DNA of 64,000 bases from Nitrospirota bacterium (GTDB lineage: Bacteria > Nitrospirota > Thermodesulfovibrionia > Thermodesulfovibrionales > UBA6898). Made by a program: the position numbers and the translations under genes. The notes under the pieces were generated by a model. It saw nothing but the letters and a program-made list of their open reading frames with translations. It was not told the DNA's origin and did not search any database. Below are positions 18,842 to 51,232 of the stretch, piece after piece. How positions within the stretch are numbered: position 1 is the stretch's first letter; the number at the start of each line of letters is the position of its first letter. The DNA is taken from positions 145,705 through 209,704 of the forward strand of contig JACRLQ010000008.1 in assembly GCA_016215155.1 (NCBI GenBank). Reading direction: 5' to 3'.

Positions 18842-21292
18842 ATGCGCACTAATATCGTATTGTTCGGGCTGATTATTTTTGTGGTGTCCGTGATCATAAC
18901 CCTGAATATCTTCTTTCAGCAGAGTTACCAGGGGGAGATGGCCGAGCAGTTCAGCCGCGAAAAGCAGCTGATCGCGCGGTCGGTAGCAAAAAGTATCAGC
19001 GATGAGATCGAGCACCTTGAAGACGAAACGATAAGGTTTGCCCGCCTTCTTTCGGCCAGGGGACTGGAGAAAAGGGGTATAGATATTTTCGTAAAAGACA
19101 CCTTCTCGGAGATCGACGAGGACGAGGGGATCGTGCTTAAAATATTCGACAATAGCGGCAGTGTTCTGTTTAATTCGTCCGGCATGAAATCTGACGCCGA
19201 CGACGAGGAACATCTCGAACTCGCCAAACTTGTGCGGCCCGGCGAAGTCCAGTTTCACGATATGGTAGAGGAGGGACGGAAACTCGTGCTGATGACGCCG
19301 GCCGCCAAAAAAGGGGGCACGGCAAAAGGCTACATCATGATCGATATACCTCTCGACTCCATCAGCCGTAAATTCCTGGAGCCGATCAGGACCGGCAGCC
19401 GCGGCTACGCCTGGATGATGAACGGAAACGGGACGCTCCTGTATCATCCTACCGAAACCAGCATGGTCGGCAAGAACATCTACAGGGCCGACAAGACCTG
19501 TTTCGACTGCCACAAGTCGTTCGACCTCGAAAAGAAGATCCTGGGCAGCGACGAGAAGGGATTCAGCTCTTATATAGCCCCCAGGGGAGAGGACAAGATC
19601 ATCGCTTTTGCCCGCGCGAAGGTTTCCCATATGTCATGGATAATATGTGTTTCGATGCCATATTCGGAGGTCACCTTCAGTATCAGAAAGAGCATGCAGC
19701 TTCATTCTCTTTTGGCCATATCGATCTTTCTTACCACCCTGGCGTTTGCCTTTGCCGTGGTGTCTATGAACAGGCAGAGGATAAAGGCCGAGGAGAAGGC
19801 GAAGCACCTGGAGACCCACCAGCAGCTCGAAAAAGAGATCCTGCAGACGAAGGACTACCTCGAAAATATACTGGAGAGCACCGAGTCGAAGATCATGGTG
19901 CTTGACAGGGAGATGAAAATAAAGATGATAAATTCAGCCCAGGAGCGGATCTGCGCCGCAAGCAAACGGGACATCGTAGGGCAGGACTTCTTCAAGGTCT
20001 TTCCGATGGACCGGGACAAAGACCTCGAATCCATGAAAAATATACTTGTCCGGTGCCTAAACGGCTTAAGCCACAGGATAAGCAATTATCATTTTCATGA
20101 GGGAGACAGGACACTTTTTCTGAACATCAGCATCAACCCGCTTGTCATACATGGCGAAATAGAAGGCATAATACTTTCGAGCAGTGATGTCACCGAGGAG
20201 GTCAAGCTCAAGACGAAGATCCAGGAGTACGCCCTGCGGCTCGAAGAGATGGTGGTCACAAGGACGGATGAGCTCAGGGGAGAGAAGGAAAAGCTGGACG
20301 CGATCGTAAGCGCCATCGAAGGCGGGCTCTGCGTCTTCGACAAGGGGAAAGAGACCGCGGTATGGGCCAACAGGACTATCCAGGACTGGATAGGGAAGCA
20401 GGAACAGGATGGGATTACCCTGTCGGATATTTACGGCGGAGACGCCCTTTACAATGCGATCGTCGACAACCGCCTGCTCCGGGAGGTACTCTACCGCGAG
20501 TTTGGAAACAGAAAGGGCTATTTCCAGATCACCTCGACCCCCATCGTCGCCCCCGCCGGCCACGGCAGGACGCTCATACTGATCCAGGACATAACCGAGA
20601 TGAAGAGGATGGAAGAAAGGATGATGAATTCCGAGAAGCTGTCCGCGCTTGCGAGGATCTCCGCGGGAGTGGCCCATGAGATAGGGAACCCCCTGACGTC
20701 GATATCGTCATATGTGCAGATCCTGAGGGAGATGGAGCACGACGAGTTTACCAGGGAGAGCCTCGATACCATAGCAAAACACATAAACAGGATCGCCGAT
20801 ATCGTGAGGCAGATGTCGAGTTTTACAAAGACCAGGGCCTCCGACCTCAGGCATTATGACGTCGATAATCTCGTCAACCAGACCCTGGACCTGGTCAAAT
20901 ACGACAAGCGCATGAAACACATCCGCACCAGCAAAGATATCCCGCCGGGCCTGCCGCATGTAGCGGCCGATGAGACGCAGCTTATACAGGTGCTCATGAA
21001 TATCATTTTGAACGCGGCCGACGCCATGCCCAGCGGAGGTGAACTGAATATACAAGCGAAGAGGATGGAAAGCGAAATCGAGATAGCGGTAACGGATTCC
21101 GGCAGCGGCATCCCGACAGAGTATCTCGAAAAGATATTCGACCCTTTTTTTACGACAAAGGAGATGGGCACGGGGCTCGGGCTTGCGGTAAGCTATAGTA
21201 TAATAAAAAGTTACCAGGGGGACATCCTGGTCGAAAACAGGCCCGAGGGCGGGACTATTTTCAGGATCAGGCTGCCATATTATGAAAGCTGA
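18842..21292 (+). CDS. Sensor histidine kinase with periplasmic haem-c motif and two PAS domains
   Basis: Membrane two-component kinase, 816 residues. The first transmembrane helix is at residues about 5-25. It is followed by a periplasmic Cache-like sensor of about 260 residues containing CFDCH (C220, C223, H224), a c-type haem attachment motif. The second helix is near residues 285-310. Then come a coiled coil, PAS 1 (about 335-450), a coiled coil, PAS 2 (about 485-595), a HisKA box with the phospho-acceptor in AHEIGNP (H612), the N box MNIILNAADAMP and G boxes DSGSGIP and GTGLGLAVSYS. All catalytic motifs are intact. It ends LPYYES. The last codons lie inside an 18-bp repeat that also forms the start of the partner regulator 3.5 kb away. 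ATG 18842 lacks a clear ribosome site. The haem suggests redox or gas sensing; the ligand is unknown. Confidence 0.9.
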   Translation: MRTNIVLFGLIIFVVSVIITLNIFFQQSYQGEMAEQFSREKQLIARSVAKSISDEIEHLEDETIRFARLLSARGLEKRGIDIFVKDTFSEIDEDEGIVLKIFDNSGSVLFNSSGMKSDADDEEHLELAKLVRPGEVQFHDMVEEGRKLVLMTPAAKKGGTAKGYIMIDIPLDSISRKFLEPIRTGSRGYAWMMNGNGTLLYHPTETSMVGKNIYRADKTCFDCHKSFDLEKKILGSDEKGFSSYIAPRGEDKIIAFARAKVSHMSWIICVSMPYSEVTFSIRKSMQLHSLLAISIFLTTLAFAFAVVSMNRQRIKAEEKAKHLETHQQLEKEILQTKDYLENILESTESKIMVLDREMKIKMINSAQERICAASKRDIVGQDFFKVFPMDRDKDLESMKNILVRCLNGLSHRISNYHFHEGDRTLFLNISINPLVIHGEIEGIILSSSDVTEEVKLKTKIQEYALRLEEMVVTRTDELRGEKEKLDAIVSAIEGGLCVFDKGKETAVWANRTIQDWIGKQEQDGITLSDIYGGDALYNAIVDNRLLREVLYREFGNRKGYFQITSTPIVAPAGHGRTLILIQDITEMKRMEERMMNSEKLSALARISAGVAHEIGNPLTSISSYVQILREMEHDEFTRESLDTIAKHINRIADIVRQMSSFTKTRASDLRHYDVDNLVNQTLDLVKYDKRMKHIRTSKDIPPGLPHVAADETQLIQVLMNIILNAADAMPSGGELNIQAKRMESEIEIAVTDSGSGIPTEYLEKIFDPFFTTKEMGTGLGLAVSYSIIKSYQGDILVENRPEGGTIFRIRLPYYES
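21273..21290 (+). repeat. Left 18-bp direct repeat (attL-like)
   Basis: TGCCATATTATGAAAGCT, identical to 24767-24784. It covers the final codons of the sensor kinase. The base after it differs between copies (G here, A on the right), which changes the kinase stop from TAA to TGA. Confidence 0.85.
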
Positions 21293-21446
21293 CATTAAAG
21301 GCCTTCACACAGCATCACCTGATATCACACAGTGTTATTTTATGCGGGTTTGCAGTTTTCTGAACATCCGGTGATACCGTATATCATCAGGTGAAGTACT
21401 AAAAAACTACATAATATTTTTCCTCTGTTAAAATAGGGTATCAGGA
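21288..21446 (+). repeat. Element repeat, copy 1
   Basis: An imperfect repeat of about 150 bp starting GCTGACATTAAAGGCC and ending with the ACATAATATTTTT...GTTAAAATAGGGTATCAGG segment. It shares its left part with copy 2 (22059-22208), with only a few differences over the first 85 bp, and its right part with copy 3 (22682-22750). It contains CATCACCTGAT facing ATCCGGTGATA, the degenerate form of the inverted repeat that is perfect in copy 2. The 303-nt gap 21293-21595 holds only this repeat and a promoter-like run with three TTGAC boxes near 21503-21535. Confidence 0.8.
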
Positions 21447-21595
21447 GATGCTGCTAAGCATGCCCAGGTAAACTATAAAACCGGACATTTCTATTTTGCC
21501 TTGACATCAGTTGACTTTTCCGTTGACATTTTATTAGGCCTATGGCAACATTATAAAAATATTTTTTATGGTTATATCTGCTAGGAGGTAATAGC

Positions 21596-22051
21596 ATGAC
21601 TACGAAGATAGCAATATTGACTGTTGTTTTTATTGTTTTAGCGTCGGGGGCCTATGCGGAGTCAGGGATTGAAGTGAACGGGGATCTCAAAATAGGTGGA
21701 TCAGGTGTGCTCAGATTTCCCGACGGAACATATCAAAACAGTGCCGCAAGAATGATATATGGCACTGTTGGAAGTAACGGAACCATCTACACGGGGACTG
21801 GATTTTCGGTTACACATACAGGCGGAACCGGAGGCTATTTGCTGACATTTGCTGCGGATGCCATTCCCATCAGTTGCCAGGTAACTGCCGCGAGTACTTA
21901 TGACACTCTTTGTAATATTTATACAACCAAATTTTCATGTGGTACAGAGTGCCTGCCTAATAACAGGGCTAGCGTTTCTTGCGGGTTTAACCTCGCTTCT
22001 ACGGATAACGCAGTTGATTCTAGTTTTCAGTTCCTGTGTTTTATGCAATAG
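21596..22051 (+). CDS. Small secreted protein with FPDGT motif
   Basis: 151 residues with a clear signal peptide: a short basic start, the hydrophobic core IAILTVVFIVLASGA and a likely cleavage after AYA. The mature part begins ESGIEVNGDLKIGGSGVLRF and contains the FPDGTYQNSAA motif, which recurs in bacterial secreted and tail-fibre-like repeat proteins. It has five or more cysteines in its C-terminal half, suggesting disulfides. A strong AGGAGG lies 6-7 nt before ATG 21596. It lies inside the integrated element downstream of repeat copy 1. Function unknown. Confidence 0.7.
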   Translation: MTTKIAILTVVFIVLASGAYAESGIEVNGDLKIGGSGVLRFPDGTYQNSAARMIYGTVGSNGTIYTGTGFSVTHTGGTGGYLLTFAADAIPISCQVTAASTYDTLCNIYTTKFSCGTECLPNNRASVSCGFNLASTDNAVDSSFQFLCFMQ

Positions 22052-22058
22052 CCTAATC

Positions 22059-22208
22059 GCTGACATTAAAGGCCTTCACACAGTATCACCTGATATCACA
22101 CAGCGTTATTTTATGCGGGTCTGCAGTTTTCTGAACATCAGGTGATAGCAGGTATTATCAGGTGAACTACATAAAAACTACATAATTCTTTGTATATAGG
22201 GTATGATA
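22059..22208 (+). repeat. Element repeat, copy 2
   Basis: Starts GCTGACATTAAAGGCC directly after the secreted-protein gene. It contains a perfect 11-bp inverted repeat, TATCACCTGAT (22084-22094) and ATCAGGTGATA (22137-22147), spaced by 42 nt. A further ATCAGGTGAA occurs at 22158-22167. It leads into the TumE-like fragment at 22219. Confidence 0.8.
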
Positions 22209-22218
22209 TAACTACCAT

Positions 22219-22290
22219 ATGAAATCAGAGCTTATTCTCCATGACAAGGTTAAGTATGCGGGCGGGGGCATTTATCGAGAGGTGAACACT
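22219..22290 (+). pseudogene. N-terminal stub of a TumE/DUF6516-type toxin
   Basis: The 24 codons in frame before the antitoxin start read like the first strand and turn of DUF6516 (TumE) proteins (MKSELILHDKVKYAGG). In intact systems that toxin gene lies directly upstream of this kind of helix-turn-helix antitoxin. The rest of the toxin is missing, so the stub now runs in frame into the antitoxin. Recognition is by eye from a short stretch. Confidence 0.4.
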
Positions 22291-22671
22291 ATGAAGGTTA
22301 AGAATGTGACCATAGGGATAAAGAGCGTCAGGGATGTCTTAGAGGATACAGGAGATGTTATGGCCCGGATCGAGCGCGGGGAGCGGGTAAGCAGGAGAAA
22401 GCCGGGTGTCTATTTCGAGAATCTTGATGTTATGCGAAAGGCGATAACAGCCGAACGGCTGCGACTTCTTAAGGTCATCAAGGATAATCACCCGGAATCA
22501 CTGTATGCGCTGGCAAAGATGCTTGAAAGGAACCTGAAAAACGTATCGGATGATGTCAGGTATCTTGCTGATTTGGGCCTGATAGAACTTGCCAAGGGCA
22601 AGACCAACGGACGCGAAAAGACAACGCCTATTGTCCGATATGAAAAAATCAGGGTTGAGATAGCGGTATAG
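22291..22671 (+). CDS. HTH antitoxin-like DNA-binding protein (HVO_A0114/TumA type)
   Basis: 126 residues. The N-terminal part MKVKNVTIGIKSVRDVLED is followed by a C-terminal winged helix-turn-helix (LLKVIKDNHPESLYALAKML, then VSDDVRYLADLGLIEL). This layout matches HVO_A0114-family DNA-binding proteins that act as antitoxins to TumE/DUF6516 toxins. ATG 22291 is chosen because GAGAGGTG sits just upstream; the longer frame from 22219 carries the toxin stub. The cognate toxin is reduced to a stub, so the protein may now be an orphan regulator. The perfect inverted repeat in repeat copy 2 is a possible binding site. Confidence 0.7.
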   Translation: MKVKNVTIGIKSVRDVLEDTGDVMARIERGERVSRRKPGVYFENLDVMRKAITAERLRLLKVIKDNHPESLYALAKMLERNLKNVSDDVRYLADLGLIELAKGKTNGREKTTPIVRYEKIRVEIAV

Positions 22672-22681
22672 GGAGGTGTTC

Positions 22682-22750
22682 CCTGATATCACAGAGTGTT
22701 AAAAAACTACATAATATTTTTCCCTCTGTTAAAATAGGGCATCAGGAGGT
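22682..22750 (+). repeat. Element repeat, copy 3 (partial)
   Basis: Contains CCTGATATCACAGAGTGTT and then the same right-hand segment as copy 1 (AAAAAACTACATAATATTTTT, shown as shorter pieces AAAAAACTAC and ATAATATTTTT, then CTGTTAAAATAGGG). The middle palindromic part is deleted. It ends in ATCAGGAGG, which serves as the ribosome-binding site of the antitoxin at 22756. Confidence 0.75.
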
Positions 22751-22755
22751 GTACT

Positions 22756-22938
22756 ATGCAGGCCGTTGAAAGGGAAGAGCTGAAGGAAATCATGAGGGAA
22801 GTTATCCGGGAAGAAATGTTGACGCTCGCTCTGAACCTTATCCCTTATGTATCAGATGAAGAGCAGAAGGGAATGGAAGCCATGGCTATTGACCAGAGCG
22901 GGGACTTTGTAAGCGGTATGTCATGGCTTGGACGTTAG
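22756..22938 (+). CDS. Antitoxin of RelE-type pair
   Basis: Acidic protein of 60 residues. The amphipathic helical N terminus (REELKEIMREVIREEMLTLA) suits dimerisation or toxin binding. The C terminus (DFVSGMSWLGR) overlaps the toxin start by 16 nt. The ribosome site AGGAGG, supplied by repeat copy 3, lies 7 nt upstream. The antitoxin role is inferred from its size, charge and tight overlap with the toxin rather than from a named family. Confidence 0.7.
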   Translation: MQAVEREELKEIMREVIREEMLTLALNLIPYVSDEEQKGMEAMAIDQSGDFVSGMSWLGR

Positions 22939-23204
22939 ACTTCAAGCGTGATACTCTAAAATTCCTTTCCAAGCAGGACCAGGACACACAGCAGCAGATC
23001 AGGGTTGCACTCAATACCCTTCTTGATTCACTCGACAAAAATATTGTACCTATTACAGGCCTGGATATGAGACGACTAAAGGGCAAGTGGTCGGGATTTA
23101 TCCGTCTGAGGCTCGGCAAGATCAGAGTGATAATGAAGATAGATACTGCATCCAAGATTGTACAGGTACATAGTATAGATTACCGGGGCCAGGTGTATAA
23201 ATAA
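22923..23204 (+). CDS. RelE/ParE-superfamily toxin
   Basis: Basic protein of 93 residues with the RelE fold pattern. The start WTLDFKRDTLKFLSKQD is followed by two helices and then LDMRRLKGKWSGFIRLRLGKIRVIMKID, the arginine-rich sheet typical of mRNA interferases. It ends with a Tyr-containing strand (VHSIDYRGQVYK). ATG 22923 lies within the antitoxin gene, so translation is coupled. It is the only apparently intact TA pair in the element and could stabilise it. RelE rather than ParE activity cannot be decided by eye. Confidence 0.8.
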   Translation: MAWTLDFKRDTLKFLSKQDQDTQQQIRVALNTLLDSLDKNIVPITGLDMRRLKGKWSGFIRLRLGKIRVIMKIDTASKIVQVHSIDYRGQVYK

Positions 23205-23233
23205 GTCAGTTTAGGGGTAGGGGTCCCTTCTGA

Positions 23234-23314
23234 CTGCTTATCTATAAAGTGAATCGGAAGGCCGGGGAGAGCGTCTTTGAGAGAACCGGGACACATTCAG
23301 AGTTATTCGAGTAA
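23234..23314 (+). pseudogene. C-terminal remnant of a YafQ/RelE-type toxin
   Basis: 26 codons encoding LLIYKV...ERTGTHSELFE followed by a stop resemble the last strands of YafQ-type mRNA interferases (LLIY...RTGTHSDLF in the family). An in-frame TGA precedes them and no start or N-terminal domain is present. The rest of the gap 23205-23491 shows only a 33-codon open stretch (23322-23423, ending VKYLDD) that may be another gene fragment. Confidence 0.5.
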
Positions 23315-23491
23315 AAAGGCTATGAGGCATGACCCCATTGCACTGGGGATATCTCTGGAAGTCCCAGACCCGGACGACTGGCTGGAGGGGATGGAACACT
23401 TAGTGAAGTATCTGGACGATTAGGAGTATTAGGAAAAGGGGTCCTCGGGTCTTTTTAATAATTCTGAGATAAAGTATAATGGTTCAGGAAT

Positions 23492-23728
23492 ATGGAAGAA
23501 ATAACAAAAGAGAAGGCCTTAGAAATAGCAGCGAAGCATCTTGCAAAACAAATACCTGGCCGACTTTCCTTTTGTGAGAGACCAGCCGGAGCCTACATTC
23601 AGGGCAATTCTGACGACTATTACTGTATATTTGTTGAATCATTATCACCGTGTGTCGGGGCCGGGCAATATGTCTTTGTTTCTAAAGTTTCAGGTAAGGT
23701 TGCGTTCGCTGGCCTTCTTGATGAATAG
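23492..23728 (+). CDS. Small hypothetical protein (possible immunity-like fold)
   Basis: 78 residues: an acidic helix EEITKEKALEIAAKHLAKQI followed by strands ending YVFVSKVSGKVAFAGLLDE. The helix-then-sheet pattern recalls small YrhB/Imm35-like proteins, but the resemblance is weak. The start ATG 23492 has only AGGA nearby. It lies inside the integrated element with no partner gene visible. Confidence 0.45.
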   Translation: MEEITKEKALEIAAKHLAKQIPGRLSFCERPAGAYIQGNSDDYYCIFVESLSPCVGAGQYVFVSKVSGKVAFAGLLDE

Positions 23729-23864
23729 GATTTAAGGAAAAAAAGAGGGGGAGAATGAATCGGCTTCAGTCGGCTGCCCATGGTTGGATATGGTTATAAT
23801 TGCGGATATTCTTATGCACGTTCCATTCTTTTGATTATCATAAATACTTCTATGGGAGAGCATA

Positions 23865-24371
23865 ATGATCAAGTTTGGTAAGGGGTTAGTAGAGCATGAA
23901 AGGAAACTAATCGAGCAAGAAAGAAAGCGAGCTATACTTTTTTTATCAAAAATAAATAACCTAAAAATTTGGATTAACATTTGGATTGAACATGATCGCA
24001 AAGTTATCAGTGGCGTTGTTAATAGTATTATTAATGGGACTTACAAAAAAAATAAACATCTATTATTAGGTGGCCGATTTAGTTTCGACGACAACGTAGA
24101 GTATTTATTTGATGATATTTATGCTATCAGTTTTGAGCCGTTTTCTTTAGAAGAGGAAGCTTTCCGTAAAGACTGGATTGTTAATTTTAACAGCTCTATC
24201 TATGGCGATGAAGCAAACAGATCATGTTTTGTTTTATTTTCCGATACTGATTTAAAACCGCAGAATTTCAATGTGAATACTCCGTTAGACCAGTTTGTAC
24301 CCTTTGGTGGCGTGTTTAGGAACTTTAATTCGAGGTATTATGAAATCATTTCAAGGGCTCTAAAAAAATAA
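23865..24371 (+). CDS. Hypothetical AT-rich protein
   Basis: 168 residues with no recognised family. A Lys/Glu-rich N-terminal helix (GLVEHERKLIEQERKRAILF) is followed by an aromatic-rich mixed region (FSFDDNVEYLFDDIYAISFE) and no signal peptide or transmembrane segment. Base composition is much more AT-rich than the flanking core genes, consistent with recent acquisition within the element. ATG 23865 has a weak GGGAG about 10 nt upstream. The 90 nt after it carry nothing recognisable. Confidence 0.5.
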   Translation: MIKFGKGLVEHERKLIEQERKRAILFLSKINNLKIWINIWIEHDRKVISGVVNSIINGTYKKNKHLLLGGRFSFDDNVEYLFDDIYAISFEPFSLEEEAFRKDWIVNFNSSIYGDEANRSCFVLFSDTDLKPQNFNVNTPLDQFVPFGGVFRNFNSRYYEIISRALKK

Positions 24372-24462
24372 TCTGGTTTTTTATTTCTTGCGAGAACCAC
24401 GGAGAAATAAAAAGGAGAATATCAAAATAACATGCCAACTGCACTAAGGGGGGAGCCTCTAA

Positions 24463-24726
24463 TTTATACAGGGAATTCATACTGGCAAAGTCAGCACTCA
24501 TAGTCTTAGACATACCTTTGCGTCATTATCTATCATGGCCGGGGCCGCTGAAGGGACAGTGCAAAAGATACTCGGGCATCAGTCAGGCCGGATGACTCGA
24601 CATTATACGCACCTGTCACCGGGGTTCATGCAGGCTGAAATAAACCGGATTCAGAGCGCTTTTGAAAACAAAAGTGCTAAAAAACAACATAATGAAGCGG
24701 ACGAAAGTTTAACGGCAATAAAATAA
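24463..24726 (+). pseudogene. C-terminal fragment of a tyrosine recombinase (integrase)
   Basis: The fragment encodes the active-site half of a phage-type integrase: HSLRHTFASL (the H-x-x-R box), then KILGHQSGRMTRHYTHLSP, which contains the conserved Gly-His and the nucleophilic Tyr. Upstream the same frame is closed by stops at 24460 and 24445, and the N-terminal and first catalytic Arg regions are missing. It ends 40 nt before the right 18-bp repeat. Placement at the edge of the insert supports it as the integrase that once moved the element. Confidence 0.8.
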
Positions 24727-24766
24727 TTGTATAATATCAGGTGGTTTAATCTTTAATGGTAATAAG

Positions 24767-24784
24767 TGCCATATTATGAAAGCT
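24767..24784 (+). repeat. Right 18-bp direct repeat (attR-like)
   Basis: TGCCATATTATGAAAGCT, identical to 21273-21290. It contains the ATG start (24776) and first codons of the sigma-54 regulator. Confidence 0.85.
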
Positions 24785-25897
24785 AAAACATATAACATAC
24801 TGATCGTCGATGACGAACGCGACATCTGCCGTGCGCTGGAATTCCTTCTGACAAGGGAAGGCATAAACGAAGACGTGAAGATGACCGTAAGAAGGCTCCT
24901 TGAGCACAAGAAGGTGCTGATGGAGAATATCGCGCTGAGGCAGCAGTTGAGCCAGCATTTCGGCTGCAAGGAATTTATAGGTGTTTCCCCGCAGATCAAC
25001 AAGGTCTTCGAGGTGCTTGAGAAGGTCATCCCCACCAGAAGCAATATCCTCATACTGGGCGAAAGCGGCACGGGCAAAGGCGTGATCGCGGAGGTGGTAC
25101 ACTGTAACAGCCAGAGAAAGGACAAACCGTTTATCTCGATCAACTGTTCGGCGATCCCGGAGAACCTGCTGGAGAGCGAACTGTTCGGCTATCGGAAGGG
25201 CGCCTTTACAGGGGCCGCGTCCGACAAGAAGGGCCTCATCACGATGGCGGACCAGGGCACCCTTTTTCTTGATGAAATAGGAGACATGCCGATAGGGCTC
25301 CAGGCCAAGATCCTGAAGGTGCTTGAATCAGGAGAGGTGATGCCGGTGGGTGATACAAAGGCCACGTTTGCCGACGTGCGGCTGATAGCGGCCACAAACA
25401 AGAACATAGAAGAACAGATCAAAAAAGGCCTCTTCAGGGAGGACCTTTACTACAGGCTCAATGTGATTGAAGTGACTGTGCCTCCGCTTAGGGAAAGACG
25501 TGAGGACATCGCAGCGCTGGCTCGGCACTTCACGGAGAAATTCAGCAAAGAAAACAATAAAAAGGTGATCGATATAGCGGACGAGACGATGGAACTGCTT
25601 TATGGCTATTCGTGGCCAGGCAATATCAGGGAGCTTAGAAACGTGATGGAGCGGGCCGTGGTCCTTGCCGGGTCAGACAGGATTATGCCTGAGGACCTTC
25701 CGCACAAGATCAGGGACCAGCAGGGGTTTAAAAGTCTGGTCACCCTCAAAGACAGGCTCGACCATTACGAGGAGAAGATAATAAAAGACTCCCTCAGGGT
25801 CAACGACTGGAACAAAGAGGCCACCTCGCAGGAACTGGGGGTCGACCTGGCCACTCTCTACAGGAAGATCAAGAAACTCGGGATTTCGGATAATTAG
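24776..25897 (+). CDS. Sigma-54-dependent regulator with internally deleted receiver domain
   Basis: NtrC-family regulator and evident partner of the haem kinase. It is 373 residues, about 80 shorter than usual. The receiver starts normally (ILIVDDERDICRALEFLLTREG) and then jumps to the post-receiver linker (INEDVKMTVRRLLEHKKVL). The phospho-acceptor Asp, the switch Thr/Ser and the Lys are lost, in frame. The AAA+ domain is complete: Walker A GESGTGKG, canonical GAFTGA loop (KGAFTGAA), Walker B GTLFLDEIGDMP and the arginine-finger region. A Fis-type helix-turn-helix closes the protein (KEATSQELGVDLATLYRKIK). It could be constitutive or unresponsive; an assembly error is an alternative. Confidence 0.9.
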   Translation: MKAKTYNILIVDDERDICRALEFLLTREGINEDVKMTVRRLLEHKKVLMENIALRQQLSQHFGCKEFIGVSPQINKVFEVLEKVIPTRSNILILGESGTGKGVIAEVVHCNSQRKDKPFISINCSAIPENLLESELFGYRKGAFTGAASDKKGLITMADQGTLFLDEIGDMPIGLQAKILKVLESGEVMPVGDTKATFADVRLIAATNKNIEEQIKKGLFREDLYYRLNVIEVTVPPLRERREDIAALARHFTEKFSKENNKKVIDIADETMELLYGYSWPGNIRELRNVMERAVVLAGSDRIMPEDLPHKIRDQQGFKSLVTLKDRLDHYEEKIIKDSLRVNDWNKEATSQELGVDLATLYRKIKKLGISDN

Positions 25898-26023
25898 ATT
25901 TTGTCGCGGAAACCTAAAAAAGTTTTTTCAGGAAGCATTGTTATTTCGACGACAGGAGAAATCTCTGCCTTAAGATTTCTCACTCATAACAAATCAAAAT
26001 AAGGCGCGGCGCCCTCCCCGGCC

Positions 26024-44695: not shown

Positions 44696-44941
44696 ATGCC
44701 GTCAAGACAGAGATCCATAATGACTATATCAGTGCCGCCTGCAATGGCCAGGGAATATCGCGAGCTTGCAAAAGAGAAGGGAGAGAACTCCAGTGAGTTT
44801 TTCCGCGAGATATTCACCTACTACAAGCAGCAGAAACTGAAGCGGGATTTGGCGGATATCCAGCAATATGGCGAAGCCAGGGCCCGGAAGGCAAAACTTA
44901 CCGAAAAAGATATTGAGCGTCTTGTATTTGCCGGACGATAG
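44696..44941 (+). CDS. Ribbon-helix-helix antitoxin
   Basis: 81 residues. The N-terminal ribbon-helix-helix pattern is RQRSIMTISVPPAMAREYRE, followed by a second helix (SSEFFREIFTYYKQQKL). The C-terminal charged helix (TEKDIERLVFAGR) probably wraps the toxin. The AAGGAGG site is 8 nt before ATG 44696. The stop overlaps the PIN toxin start (TAGTG). Autoregulation through the tandem repeat just upstream is likely. Confidence 0.85.
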   Translation: MPSRQRSIMTISVPPAMAREYRELAKEKGENSSEFFREIFTYYKQQKLKRDLADIQQYGEARARKAKLTEKDIERLVFAGR

Positions 44942-45348
44942 TGTTGAAAGTTGTCTTTGATACAAACATCTATATCTCTGCTTTTATAACTCCCGGCGGG
45001 CACGGTGAAATTGCCTATCAAAAGGCGATAGATGGTGAGATCCAGCTTTTTTCGTCCGTTCCTATACTGACCGAAATGGCAGGTAAGCTTCAGGATAAGT
45101 TCAAGTGGGATGCGGAGCATGTCACCGAGGCCGTTAGACACATTGCGGCAGTGGCGGTTGTCCTTAAACCTAAAAAGCGCCTGTCCGTACTGGCAGATGA
45201 GCCGGATAATCGTGTCCTCGAATGTGCTGCAGAGGCAGGCGCTGAGGTCATCGTTACCGGAGACAAACATTTGCTGAAGCTTGATTCATATAGGGGGATT
45301 GGAATTATAACTCTGGCAAAGTTTTTGGAGAATGAACCGTCATCTTAA
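44941..45348 (+). CDS. PIN-domain toxin
   Basis: 135 residues, the 'putative toxin-antitoxin system toxin component, PIN' family. Acidic nuclease residues are visible at VVFDTNIYISAF (D8), LTEMAGKL (Glu), VLADEPDNRVLECA (Asp/Glu) and IVTGDKHLL (Asp). These proteins are Mg-dependent RNases. The start is GTG 44941 overlapping the antitoxin stop, or TTG 44944. The pair opens the accessory region that continues on the opposite strand with a DUF1016 nuclease and an AAA/subtilase pair. Confidence 0.88.
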   Translation: MLKVVFDTNIYISAFITPGGHGEIAYQKAIDGEIQLFSSVPILTEMAGKLQDKFKWDAEHVTEAVRHIAAVAVVLKPKKRLSVLADEPDNRVLECAAEAGAEVIVTGDKHLLKLDSYRGIGIITLAKFLENEPSS

Positions 45349-46460: not shown

Positions 46461-46724
46461 TTAACTTTGGTCGCAACACGGCAGGGATAACTGATGCTTG
46501 TTCTTCAACCGTAAAACTCTCTTAGTGTAAAAAGAATCCAGTCTCCTGTATTGAAATTCCAAAGAATTTTTGTCTGTATATTTCATATCATGCTTTGGGA
46601 AAAAATCTATTTTCTGCCTTCCGACATATTTATATCGGCTATTTTTATTGTTCGGTTTCTCTATAAGCCGCTCGATTAGTGGCAGGCACTTTTCGGCGAG
46701 GGCTTCCTTATCTCGATTTGTCAT
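46461..46724 (-). CDS. Small hypothetical protein between subtilase and DUF1016 genes
   Basis: 87 residues, basic and hydrophilic: MTNRDKEALAEKCLPLIERL, a middle part rich in Lys/Tyr/Asp, and a C terminus ending SLPCCDQS. It has no signal peptide and no recognised family. Spacing is 95 nt to the upstream subtilase and 62 nt to the downstream nuclease, all in one direction. It may be a third component of the IetAS-like locus or a gene remnant. Confidence 0.4.
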   Translation of the reverse strand: MTNRDKEALAEKCLPLIERLIEKPNNKNSRYKYVGRQKIDFFPKHDMKYTDKNSLEFQYRRLDSFYTKRVLRLKNKHQLSLPCCDQS

Positions 46725-46819: not shown

Positions 46820-49399
46820 TTATGTGGGTATAACCGGCACTGCGGGTCTGATGCGTGTCCGAATCTCATTGTAAATTGAAATTTCTATATCCTCCGCAAC
46901 TTCAAGCGTTGCGACAACCGCATAACGGACGGTATCAGTCAACTCCCCTGCATCTGCACGACAGTTCACCTGAAATTGAAAAAGATCGTTTTCAACAAAA
47001 ATAGACGCCTTTTTCCCCTCAAGAATTTCGTGCTGAACTGTACCGCGTTTGGCAGCACGAAAATCCGCTTCCTCCCGTTCAACCAACAACTTTTCCAGCT
47101 GCTCCTCACGAGGGTCGAAGGACAGTGCGGCTTTTCTGTATGACCGATGAGAAGAGTTTATAGGGGAAAACCAAGCCAGAGTGATCGTCAAACGTCTCCA
47201 AATTCTTTGGCCGCTTAAACTTGGTGGAAGAGGCACAGAATAAATATGCCCGTCATCACATCCAATTGAGCCATATCCTATGAGCGTGGCCCGTTGGTCA
47301 GTGCATGAATATACACGCTCAGGAGCGATATACCCATACCCAAGAAATCTGTGAATATTTTCTCTAACCTTACCCTTCTTAGAAATGGGCTTCAGCAGTT
47401 TTTCTAATACATCGTGTGTGTCACCCCAACTCGCACTGTGAATACTTAATGCCTTCAGGAGCACTGGCATATATTGTTCACTTATCGCCGCTCCTGCGCC
47501 AGCCTGACGCAGATTATCAAGCACAGCATATAGCTGTGCTGCGATGCGTGAAGTCAAGGCCGCCGCATTACTCGTGCCACGAGAATATCGCGTCGCAGAC
47601 AAATATCCAGGCTGCCTTCCGGGGCTTGCAATGCTCTGACCGGTCGCACGAGTTGATTCGCTAATTTGCAGTGTTGCACTGTCATGCATGGTACCCATTT
47701 TTTCGAGGTACAGTTGCTTGCCACTCTTAAAAAGAGCATCAGGTTTGATTGAACGCCTGAAGCCAAGACCCAATGAATTGATAGGAGAAGGCATGTGAGG
47801 CGAAACATACGGATTGATAAGATTTCCAGTAGTGCCAGCTGGCGAGCTATCGTCATGAGCGCCTGCAATGGTGAGAGAATTAATTGATTCAGCAGGGGAT
47901 AAAAGGCGGCTGTGGACCCCGTTGGCAAAAACTGAGCGTACAACCAACGCTTCTAATTCTTCGCCGTTCACAGTACTCAGGGCTTCCCGCCTGATACTCA
48001 GTTCAATATCATCAAGCTTATTACCTGCACTGACAACAAATAACACATTATATTTCCATGCCAACCAATCGAGGAGCCTTGCCCATGGGCTAAGATACTG
48101 AGTTAGTGGGCGCGATGGATCACAAACAGACAGGTTAATGATCCTTACAGTCGGGGCTGTTGCAGGTTCGCCTCCATCCCCCTCAAATATGCGTTTTACA
48201 GCTCTGTGCACCAAGTCAACGGCCAACTCGTCTTCCGGTACTAACTCTACGGGACCTTGCCAATTTCGGTAATCCGGCTTTAAGATGGGCCTTACGTAAA
48301 GCGGCCTTCCCATCGGTGGCGCGCCTGCATCAAGTTCATCGTGAATTATGAGCGACGCCATAGCTGTTCCGTGGTGCCGCTCATGAGCGGGGTATGTCTG
48401 ACTCCAATTATCGGGATCATCAACAATGAGGCGCCCAGAAAGTAAATTGTGATTTTCCAATGGAAGGCCGTCCAGAAGTGCAACTACAGGAGTTCCTACA
48501 GGGAGCTGCGCTGTTGGGAGTGCCGATCCCGGCAAAGGATCGTCTTGAGGAACTGCAACGGCAGCTTGTCCCGAAGGCCGGAAAAACATGACTTGATCAC
48601 AGCGAACGAGTTGTGTCACCGGATTATCGATTATTTCTTTAATTGCGTTTATTGGCAATTCCGCCAAGATACTGTGATATGCGATTTCCTTTATTACGCC
48701 CTGTTTTATAAGCCTGCCGCCTTTGTCAATCAAAAGATTTTTTATCACTTCAGCAGTGTGATGCTGGGCGCTTTCATTTTCTTTGTACCAGAGTTCTATT
48801 TCAAAACGTACGATCTGCATACCTCTTGTAGCTCGCATTTCCCAATCGTCTAAAATACCAGTTTTTTTCAGGCGGTCTTCAATTCCCCATTGCCGAATCT
48901 CCCTGAGGTGGTGAAACAGATCTTTCCATTTTGCTCTGCCGCGTTCTAATACCACAGCAGGATCCGCTTTATATTTACCCCACATCGATAATAGTTCAGC
49001 TATTGCGGTTTGATTAGTTATGACTAAGTAAAGGCGGCCATTTAACACCTTGTCTCTGTGCTTCTCGTCAGCATAGAAATCTTCATCAGGCGGGATGTCT
49101 TCCTCATCCCATTCCCCGAGCCATTCCATTCCTGGAATTGACCTAACTGCTGTTATAAAGTCCGCCACAGTCCCCACGGTCTCAAGAACAAGTACCTGTT
49201 CAAAAACAGCCCCGGTCGGCTGTGCGATAAGTTCTGCACGGCGCGCTTCAAATGTCTGTTCTATATTTTCAAACTTCGGGGTTAAACGATTACTTTGGCG
49301 GTCAGGCGACGGATAACGAAACGAACTAGGGGGGAAAGATTTTTTGGAGCGGCCTATTTTTGTGGGAGTGGGAAAGATCAGGAGAGGTTTATCGGGCAT
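46820..49399 (-). CDS. S8 subtilisin-like protease of IetS type
   Basis: 859 residues. The subtilase triad is D310 (VVALLDGLPLENH), H343 (RHHGTAMASL) and S610 (SRGTSNAAAL); the oxyanion Asn is N460 (FVVSAGN). There is no signal peptide, so it is cytoplasmic. A roughly 300-residue N-terminal region of unknown fold precedes the protease core, and a beta-rich domain follows it. The start abuts the AAA ATPase stop with no gap. An intracellular subtilase paired with an AAA ATPase is the layout of IetAS, known first as a plasmid maintenance (TA-like) pair and later as an anti-phage system. Assignment rests on architecture and order. Confidence 0.85.
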   Translation of the reverse strand: MPDKPLLIFPTPTKIGRSKKSFPPSSFRYPSPDRQSNRLTPKFENIEQTFEARRAELIAQPTGAVFEQVLVLETVGTVADFITAVRSIPGMEWLGEWDEEDIPPDEDFYADEKHRDKVLNGRLYLVITNQTAIAELLSMWGKYKADPAVVLERGRAKWKDLFHHLREIRQWGIEDRLKKTGILDDWEMRATRGMQIVRFEIELWYKENESAQHHTAEVIKNLLIDKGGRLIKQGVIKEIAYHSILAELPINAIKEIIDNPVTQLVRCDQVMFFRPSGQAAVAVPQDDPLPGSALPTAQLPVGTPVVALLDGLPLENHNLLSGRLIVDDPDNWSQTYPAHERHHGTAMASLIIHDELDAGAPPMGRPLYVRPILKPDYRNWQGPVELVPEDELAVDLVHRAVKRIFEGDGGEPATAPTVRIINLSVCDPSRPLTQYLSPWARLLDWLAWKYNVLFVVSAGNKLDDIELSIRREALSTVNGEELEALVVRSVFANGVHSRLLSPAESINSLTIAGAHDDSSPAGTTGNLINPYVSPHMPSPINSLGLGFRRSIKPDALFKSGKQLYLEKMGTMHDSATLQISESTRATGQSIASPGRQPGYLSATRYSRGTSNAAALTSRIAAQLYAVLDNLRQAGAGAAISEQYMPVLLKALSIHSASWGDTHDVLEKLLKPISKKGKVRENIHRFLGYGYIAPERVYSCTDQRATLIGYGSIGCDDGHIYSVPLPPSLSGQRIWRRLTITLAWFSPINSSHRSYRKAALSFDPREEQLEKLLVEREEADFRAAKRGTVQHEILEGKKASIFVENDLFQFQVNCRADAGELTDTVRYAVVATLEVAEDIEISIYNEIRTRIRPAVPVIPT

Positions 49400-50386
49400 C
49401 TATTTTGCTTTTTCCTTTTTTGAGGGTAAAACAAATCTGGTTTCCCACTGTTTAATCCGTTCGTCAACAATTTTTTTGATATTGCTATCGGGCAATGAAA
49501 GTGTATTCCTTCTTAAGATGTCAGTACAAAAATCTTCGAGTTCAGCAAAACTAGCTCCCTCTAATCTTTTTGCAAGAACATTAAGGGAATGCCCAAGTTG
49601 GTTTTTCAAGCGCTTCTCAAACCTAATTAACCACTCTTCAACCTGAGATATACTCGGTTTGGGCAATAACATTTTCAGTTGAAATCTCCTCCATACGGCC
49701 CGGTCCAAAAGTTCAGGATGGTTACTTGCAGTTACTACCACTACATAGCTTGGCAATGTGTCAATTTGCATAAGAAGCGAGCTCACCACCCGTTTGATTT
49801 CGCCAGTTTCATGAACGTCACCTCTCTCTTTCCCTATTGCATCAAATTCATCAAAAAAGAGGACACAATTACGTGTTCGGGCGTATTCGAACAATTTTTT
49901 AAGTCGGGTAGCGGTTTCGCCTAAGTAACTTCCTATTATTCCTTCATATCTTACGACAAAGAATGGAACCATTAATTCTTGTGCAATAGCTTCAGCAAGA
50001 GATGTTTTCCCATTACCAGGCGGCCCAGCCAATAATATGCGATTTCTGGGTTCAAGATTATATGAATGTAATAATTCTCTCCTTTGGTGTTCCTCTATTA
50101 ACTCTTTGCATTCAGTCAGAACCATACCGGGCAGTATCAAATCCTGCAAAGAAATCTTAGGTTGAATATCAAACAGGAGATTCTGAACTTTTTCATCTAT
50201 GCCATTTGTGGTTAGCTGGTAAGATGATCCGTTTGACTTTATATTTCCAATCAAACGGTCTGCCAAAACATGATGTTGCTTGGCTCGTTCTTCGGCTGCC
50301 AGAGCTTCGACTGTTTTCTTAAATAAGGCGTGATCGCCGCTGCTTCCTGCTTTAACCAAATTTATCAATAAGTCTGCCCGTGCCAT
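49400..50386 (-). CDS. AAA ATPase of IetA type, partner of the subtilase
   Basis: 328 residues with a single AAA domain related to the FtsH/spastin-like group: Walker A GPPGNGKTS (residues about 121-129), pore-loop region YEGIIGSYLGETATRL, Walker B CVLFFDEFDAIGKE, sensor region VVVTASNHPELLD and RAVWRRF with Arg residues. The N-terminal helical part (residues 1-90) lacks a known domain. ATG 50386 (MARADLLINL) is preferred; an in-frame ATG 39 nt earlier lies in a region with no ribosome site. It probably unfolds or activates the adjacent protease, or gates its target recognition. Confidence 0.85.
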   Translation of the reverse strand: MARADLLINLVKAGSSGDHALFKKTVEALAAEERAKQHHVLADRLIGNIKSNGSSYQLTTNGIDEKVQNLLFDIQPKISLQDLILPGMVLTECKELIEEHQRRELLHSYNLEPRNRILLAGPPGNGKTSLAEAIAQELMVPFFVVRYEGIIGSYLGETATRLKKLFEYARTRNCVLFFDEFDAIGKERGDVHETGEIKRVVSSLLMQIDTLPSYVVVVTASNHPELLDRAVWRRFQLKMLLPKPSISQVEEWLIRFEKRLKNQLGHSLNVLAKRLEGASFAELEDFCTDILRRNTLSLPDSNIKKIVDERIKQWETRFVLPSKKEKAK

Positions 50387-51232
50387 TATGTTGATATCAT
50401 AAGAAAGAAATAGACACAAATGCAATAACCATTCGCCAGGCTATCCTCGTTTCCTATATAGTCAATAAAACTGTCACAAAGTGAAGGAAAATCACCACCG
50501 GAAGGTTCAGTTTCGCCTGTTGAAAGAGGTTCTGGGGAAAGTGAAATGAAAACAATAGGTGCTGTGAAGTCGCGGGTAGTGGGCTAGTTTGAAATGGAAG
50601 TAATATTTTTAACAGCAGATTGAATTAAGAATTGCGTCGGCTTGCACACGCTGGGCACCAACAGTTGGTATCAGTAAACTGTTTATGAACTAACCCATTG
50701 AAGTTCCTTAAGATTGGTCACACCCCATCTTGTTCCACGTCTTCGGAAATCACTGGATAAGGCCTGTAATGTTTTTTCATGGCATTTAAATAGAGTCTGT
50801 GTATAAAATAAGAAGTCGTCATCCTTGGCCTGCCCCTGGGATCCGGAACATCCTGAAAACAATGGATTCCCGCCTTCGCGGGAATGATGGAAAAAAACAA
50901 TAATGGCAGTTTATACACAGCCACTAAATAAAAAATGCAGCCGGGTGAATATTTCTATTCATCGAACCGCCGTGGCAGCTCTCCCAACCGCAGTTATAAT
51001 TTATCGTAAATGCGAGACAAAATCAAGGGGAAAGGTGTCATAAATAGATTTAATAGGTCTTTACTTGTCTAATAAAGAAATAATATTTTCAAGCACCCAC
51101 AAATGATCTGTAGCCCCTGCTTCAATACAGGGCGTAAATCTTAACATCTGATGAATAGGGCCAGTTGTTCAAAACCTTGGATTCAGCCCCTTCAAATTGA
51201 CTCGAATCTTCTATATTGGTTAATATTTCGGT
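50387..51232 (+). other. Gene-free stretch between defence pair and dnaE
   Basis: About 850 nt with no supported gene. It contains a MITE-like repeat (50784-50932) and otherwise AT-rich sequence without a convincing promoter or terminator. The ATPase promoter must lie in its left part, reading leftward. The 300 nt before dnaE show no ribosome site for dnaE. Confidence 0.6.
50784..50932 (+). mobile_element. MITE-like non-autonomous element
   Basis: Imperfect terminal inverted repeats of about 24 bp: 50784-50807 ends TCTGTGTATAAA and 50910-50932 begins TTTATACACAGCCAC, facing each other. The 149-bp unit has no ORF and carries an internal hairpin ATTCCCGC-CTTC-GCGGGAAT (50866-50885), a REP-like palindrome common in bacterial genomes. 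No transposase gene is nearby. The parent insertion sequence cannot be named by eye. Confidence 0.6.

What the first reader, a model, noticed from the sequence alone, without database searches (positions are those of the whole stretch)
46820..50386. IetAS-type AAA ATPase/subtilase locus with possible extra genes
A cytoplasmic subtilase with full D-H-S triad abuts an AAA ATPase, the layout of IetAS. Here a small unknown gene and a DUF1016 nuclease follow in the same direction, and an RHH/PIN pair lies next door. The extended set might be a larger defence system in which the nuclease is an effector.
Basis: partly seen in the sequence, partly recalled or inferred. Interest (0 to 1): 0.6.

Follow-up and report, generated by a model that had tools for sequence, protein, structure and literature searches.

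The report
Ordinary two-gene IetAS defence pair
A bacterium of the phylum Nitrospirota carries an intact copy of a known two-gene stress or anti-phage module (an ATPase and a protease), and the extra genes beside it are unrelated neighbours or broken gene remnants, so the proposed larger system is not supported.

Summary
The AAA ATPase and subtilase are real, abut exactly, and match PADLOC's IetA and IetS models very strongly (503 and 1068 bits). All catalytic residues are conserved in 32-35 homologues from many phyla. They belong to a divergent IetAS clade: both fall far below the cut-offs of the NCBIfam equivalogs. DUF1016 lies near this clade's IetAS in only 1 of 29 other loci with at least 2 kb of downstream sequence, and there it overlaps a type I RM hsdS gene. 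Six close DUF1016 relatives have no IetAS beside them, and the RHH/PIN pair accompanies no other IetAS locus examined. The 'small unknown gene' is the C-terminal end of a ~307-aa gene; the rest is missing here. Upstream lies a second wreck: an intact DUF3800-VI RNA whose DUF3800 gene is decayed. So an ordinary IetAS pair sits in a low-GC variable island next to dnaE, between gene remnants. The likely mechanism is a toxic cytosolic protease (IetS) held in check by an ATPase (IetA) and released by phage or plasmid stress; this is inferred from relatives. Noted in passing: five IetAS loci elsewhere are directly followed by type III RM genes.

The parts
49400..50386 (-). IetA: AAA ATPase, 328 aa (ATG start; the TTG at 50425 is not supported by homologues)
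   Evidence: PADLOC PDLC04232 IetA 502.8 bits, PF00004 112 bits; Walker A G121-T128, Walker B D179-E180, N222, R233/R234 invariant in 35 homologues, M1 in 97%; AlphaFold2 pLDDT 80
46820..49399 (-). IetS: cytosolic S8 subtilase, 859 aa, starts directly after the IetA stop codon
   Evidence: PADLOC PDLC04233 IetS 1067.7 bits, PF00082 50 bits; D310, H343, S610, N460 invariant in 32 homologues; subtilisin fold for residues ~300-690
46461..46724 (-). 87-aa open frame: C-terminal remnant of a ~307-aa gene, not a functional partner
   Evidence: 62% identity to the C-terminus of the L061 protein (L061:1468-2391 minus); N-terminal part absent from the window; no PADLOC, Pfam, NCBIfam or plasmid match
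45364..46398 (-). DUF1016 / YhcG-type PD-(D/E)XK protein, intact but unlinked neighbour
   Evidence: PF06250 196 bits, PF17761 160 bits, PADLOC candidate PDC-S02 491 bits; near IetAS in only 1 of 29 other loci
44696..44941 (+). RHH (CopG-type) antitoxin-like protein, independent of IetAS
   Evidence: PF01402; not found at other IetAS loci
44941..45348 (+). PIN-domain toxin-like protein, convergent with DUF1016
   Evidence: PF13470, TIGR00305; not found at other IetAS loci
50938..50990 (-). DUF3800-VI RNA (Rfam RF02915), three-way junction; relic of a former DUF3800 gene locus
   Evidence: 54.2 bits against gathering score 35, full-length match; directly upstream of DUF3800 genes in L149-L151
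50699..50781 (-). decayed DUF3800 gene remnant downstream of the RNA
   Evidence: tblastn of the L150 DUF3800 protein, 59% over 27 residues, E 7e-6 in the 7.3-kb region
50785..50932 (.). 148-bp element with 23-nt terminal inverted repeats lying between the RNA and the DUF3800 remnant
   Evidence: inverted repeat I2; only this pair in the window, none in 100 shuffles

Best explanation
The feature is a complete two-gene IetAS module of the PADLOC PDLC04232/04233 clade. It was acquired in a variable, low-GC island between a SpoIIE/STAS/HATPase gene cluster and dnaE. Its neighbours (gene fragment, DUF1016 nuclease, RHH/PIN pair, DUF3800-VI RNA with decayed DUF3800 gene) are independent island cargo or wreckage. 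Proposed mechanism: IetS is an intracellular subtilase kept harmless by the AAA ATPase IetA; infection, or loss or disturbance of the module, relieves that control, and proteolysis of cell or phage proteins arrests the cell. Shown here: gene content, adjacency, conserved catalytic and ATPase residues, strict IetA-IetS linkage and lack of linkage of the neighbours. Inferred from relatives: antitoxin/toxin roles and abortive defence. Not known: trigger and protease substrate.
For: PADLOC IetA and IetS hits. S8 triad and AAA motifs invariant across 32 and 35 homologues from Nitrospirota, Desulfobacterota, KSB1, Actinomycetota, Pseudomonadota and others. IetA lies immediately 5' of IetS in nearly every locus with full sequence. 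DUF1016 occurs in 1 of 29 loci with at least 2 kb downstream, and there beside hsdS. Six DUF1016 relatives lack IetAS. The small ORF is a gene fragment. Orphan DUF3800-VI RNA with decayed gene. GC3 of 0.35-0.55 in the island against 0.67-0.71 in the flanking core genes. Different genes upstream of dnaE in two genus relatives. Published relatives: SgiAT of SGI1 and IetAS of pTiC58 act as protease toxin and AAA antitoxin (PMC5006074).
Against: The pair scores far below NCBIfam's equivalog cut-offs for the antiphage IteS and IteA (73 of 900 bits and 221 of 510 bits), so function by identity to the phage-tested pair cannot be assumed. No phage data exist for this clade in what I could read. The IetS model has only moderate confidence (mean pLDDT 66).
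Confidence: 0.85

Rival explanations
1. A larger four-gene defence system: IetAS senses infection, and the protease activates the DUF1016 nuclease (helped by the small protein), which degrades nucleic acid as the effector.
For: Same strand and order; the nuclease is intact and in PADLOC's candidate family PDC-S02; one other locus (L034) also has a DUF1016 gene downstream of IetAS.
Against: 1 of 29 loci; in L034 the DUF1016 overlaps an hsdS gene and is only 34% identical; the small gene is a fragment; 421-bp gap; six DUF1016 relatives lack IetAS; DUF1016 is found in 20 of 61 related genomes, in several copies in some, whether or not IetAS is present.
Confidence: 0.03
2. IetAS here acts mainly as an addiction (toxin-antitoxin) module that stabilises a mobile element or island rather than as a phage defence.
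For: The published SgiAT and pTiC58 pairs stabilise an island and a plasmid (PMC5006074); 96 plasmid records carry relatives; this locus lies in a low-GC variable stretch.
Against: No integrase or transfer genes were seen beside the window's pair; PADLOC and NCBIfam list the family as antiphage. The two roles are not exclusive.
Confidence: 0.35
3. The pair is a domesticated proteostasis protease (an ATPase feeding a protease) with no defence role.
For: IetA's AAA domain is close to Cdc48/FtsH-type ATPases.
Against: Sporadic distribution (1 of 61 relatives; 30 of 396 in the phylum, many of them weak), plasmid carriage and decayed neighbours point to mobile cargo.
Confidence: 0.08

Closest known systems
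IetAS, PADLOC clade PDLC04232 (IetA) / PDLC04233 (IetS)
   Same: Full-length matches at 503 and 1068 bits, two-gene order AAA then S8, all motifs
   Different: Only ordinary sequence divergence (37-56% identity of the window IetS to the 11 relatives aligned)
NCBIfam IteA/IteS antiphage equivalogs (NF042959 / NF042956)
   Same: Same two domains and order; partial matches
   Different: 221 and 73 bits, far below curated cut-offs of 510 and 900
SgiAT of Salmonella genomic island 1 and IetAS of pTiC58 (PMC5006074; Yamamoto 2009 cited there)
   Same: AAA antitoxin plus subtilisin-like toxin operon
   Different: Not aligned here; clade relationship to the window pair was not tested
DUF1016 / YhcG PD-(D/E)XK proteins (PF06250/PF17761, PADLOC candidate PDC-S02)
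   Same: The neighbouring gene is a full-length member
   Different: Not part of the IetAS module; no linkage

Membership tests
IetAS (PADLOC definition) | AAA ATPase matching an IetA model | tested here: met
   PDLC04232, 502.8 bits, 1.2e-151
IetAS (PADLOC definition) | S8 subtilase matching an IetS model, adjacent and same strand | tested here: met
   PDLC04233, 1067.7 bits; start codon directly follows the IetA stop
IetAS (PADLOC definition) | Intact catalytic triad and Walker motifs | tested here: met
   D310/H343/S610, N460; G121-T128, D179-E180, R233/R234
IetAS (PADLOC definition) | Toxin-antitoxin behaviour or anti-phage protection | not testable with these tools
   Only relatives were tested experimentally (PMC5006074)
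NCBIfam antiphage IteA/IteS equivalogs | Score above the curated cut-offs | tested here: not met
   221 of 510 and 73 of 900 bits: not filed as a member of these equivalogs
Extended IetAS + small gene + DUF1016 system | Recurrent linkage of the extra genes to IetAS | tested here: not met
   DUF1016 in 1 of 29, with hsdS; small gene and RHH/PIN in none
Extended IetAS + small gene + DUF1016 system | Small gene is a complete gene | tested here: not met
   C-terminal fragment of a ~307-aa protein
DUF1016 / PDC-S02 | Full-length DUF1016_N plus YhcG_C domains | tested here: met
   PF17761 and PF06250 above cut-offs
DUF3800-VI RNA (RF02915) | Covariance model score above gathering | tested here: met
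   54.2 against 35 bits, positions 1-52 of 52

The most novel reading that the evidence does not exclude
In this one lineage the DUF1016 nuclease has been recruited next to IetAS as an accessory effector, giving a locally assembled IetAS-nuclease combination.
Probability: 0.03. Interest if true: 0.45.

Novelty: new member of a known kind. Interest (0 to 1): 0.15.

Why it matters
It removes a false lead: the four-gene order does not recur as a unit. It also shows how island wreckage can look like an operon, with one 'gene' of the set being a fragment and an RNA motif left without its gene. The survey gave a positive contrast: elsewhere IetAS pairs are directly followed by type III restriction-modification genes, which is a better candidate for an extended IetAS system.

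Tried and rejected
Plasmid and phage searches for the small ORF or its full-length relative: no match. Viral contigs with IetS: none. Solved structures for IetS and DUF1016 by sequence: none. Empty-site comparison on the left flank: the SpoIIE/STAS/HATPase cluster is not conserved in the genus, so only the dnaE side could be compared. Filing the small ORF as DUF3800: rejected as unproven, since its full-length relative has no Pfam, NCBIfam or PADLOC match. DUF3800-VI RNA at other IetAS loci: none in 8 loci searched; the second batch exceeded the size limit. Promoter and terminator scans were at chance level.

Full report
What is there. On the minus strand, an AAA ATPase (49400-50386) is followed without a single spacer base by an 859-aa subtilase (46820-49399): the junction reads ...AAA TAG ATG CCC. 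PADLOC names them IetA (PDLC04232, 503 bits) and IetS (PDLC04233, 1068 bits). Pfam gives AAA and Peptidase_S8. Aligned with 31 other IetS and 34 other IetA proteins, the serine-protease residues D310, H343, S610 and the oxyanion residue N460 never vary, nor do the Walker A, Walker B, sensor asparagine and arginine positions of IetA, apart from one substitution at N125 (97%) and one at F178 (97%). IetA's first Met is conserved in 97%, so the gene most likely starts at 50386 and not at the TTG at 50425.

Clade. The NCBIfam equivalogs for the antiphage pair are matched only weakly (221 of 510 and 73 of 900 bits). Plasmid relatives from Shewanella and Rhizobium fall in the same PADLOC clade as the window (993 and 824 bits). 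So this is a good member of a divergent IetAS clade and not of the NCBIfam equivalogs.

Test of the extended system. I collected 34 other loci of this clade from whole genomes, genome contigs and plasmids. In 29 of them at least 2 kb beyond IetS was held. A profile of DUF1016 proteins found one in a single locus, L034 (95% upper limit about 18%). There it is 34% identical to the window's protein and overlaps the end of an hsdS-like gene (named from its sequence; not run through a family search) that itself starts at the IetS stop, so its context is type I restriction-modification. Conversely, stretches of 12-18 kb around five close DUF1016 relatives (L086, L087, L088, L090, L091) hold no IetA or IetS, nor do the shorter stretches around two more (L058, L059); elsewhere in this report I count these as six or more relatives without IetAS. 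DUF1016 is common (20 of 61 related genomes, several copies in some), whereas IetAS of this clade is found in only one of those 61, the window's own. The RHH and PIN genes and the small ORF are at none of the other IetAS loci; the RHH/PIN pair is also on the opposite strand.

The small gene. Its 87 residues align at 62% identity with the C-terminus of an intact 307-aa protein in another genome of the order (L061:1468-2391), and tblastn of that full protein finds nothing else of it in the window. A third genome carries a broken version as well (L062). It is a truncated relic between IetS and DUF1016. The full-length relative has no family match, so I leave it unnamed.

The other flank. Rfam finds a DUF3800-VI RNA at 50938-50990 minus, full length, 54.2 bits. 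Searching 396 genomes of the phylum gave five others, one of them below the cut-off. In L149, L150 and L151 the RNA sits a few tens of bases before a DUF3800-type gene; the L151 protein is above the Pfam DUF3800 cut-off, the others resemble it by sequence. In the window that gene is gone except for a 27-residue stretch around 50700-50781 (59% identity, E 7e-6), and a 148-bp element with 23-nt inverted ends lies between the RNA and this stretch. IetAS is thus framed by two dead genes, in a low-GC stretch (GC3 0.35-0.55 against 0.67-0.71 in the flanking core genes) next to dnaE. Two genus relatives carry different genes upstream of dnaE.

How it likely works. Published relatives behave as a protease toxin and ATPase antitoxin: SgiT acts as the toxin and SgiA as its antitoxin in E. 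coli, and the pair helps keep its island when an IncA/C plasmid is present (PMC5006074). Phage protection by IetAS is from the defence literature (Gao and colleagues 2020, own knowledge; not readable here). By analogy IetA restrains IetS, and infection or loss of the module releases proteolysis and growth arrest. The AlphaFold2 model of IetS is of moderate confidence (pLDDT 66). Its residues ~300-690 match subtilisins, and in several alignments the part before residue 300 (from ~195) lies over subtilisin propeptides, which would fit built-in inhibition, but this is tentative. Trigger and substrate are unknown.

A more promising extension seen elsewhere. In five IetAS loci (L067, L068, L075, L076, L077) the S8 gene is followed on the same strand, within about 70 bases, by a type III methyltransferase and then a type III restriction-like gene. 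Two of these carry the window's IetS clade and three another clade. So the neighbourhood method does detect recurring partners when they exist, which strengthens the negative result for DUF1016.

Noticed in passing
L067:3578-11564, L068:189-9285, L075:3666-11343, L076:220-8370, L077:2525-11321: IetA-IetS is directly followed, same strand, by a type III RM methyltransferase (Mod) and restriction-like (Res) gene in five genomes of the phylum, across two IetS clades; possibly an extended IetAS-type III RM operon. L077 also has a RhuM-like (PDC-S05) gene between Mod and Res.
   Followed up: partly
50938-50990 minus: DUF3800-VI RNA (RF02915) whose DUF3800 gene is decayed; an RNA motif that has outlived its gene. 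In L149-L151 the RNA directly precedes the DUF3800 gene.
   Followed up: yes
50785-50932: 148-bp element with 23-nt terminal inverted repeats and an internal ATTCCCGCGAAGGCGGGAAT hairpin, lying between the RNA and the DUF3800 remnant.
   Followed up: partly
L061:1468-2391 minus: 307-aa protein of no known family, with only decayed or truncated relatives in two other genomes of the order.
   Followed up: partly
21000-26000: Another low-GC stretch (0.41-0.46 against about 0.53) in the window, perhaps a second island.
   Followed up: no
L095:6994-10445: A Klebsiella plasmid carries a relative of the pair broken into several frames, a natural loss of function.
   Followed up: no
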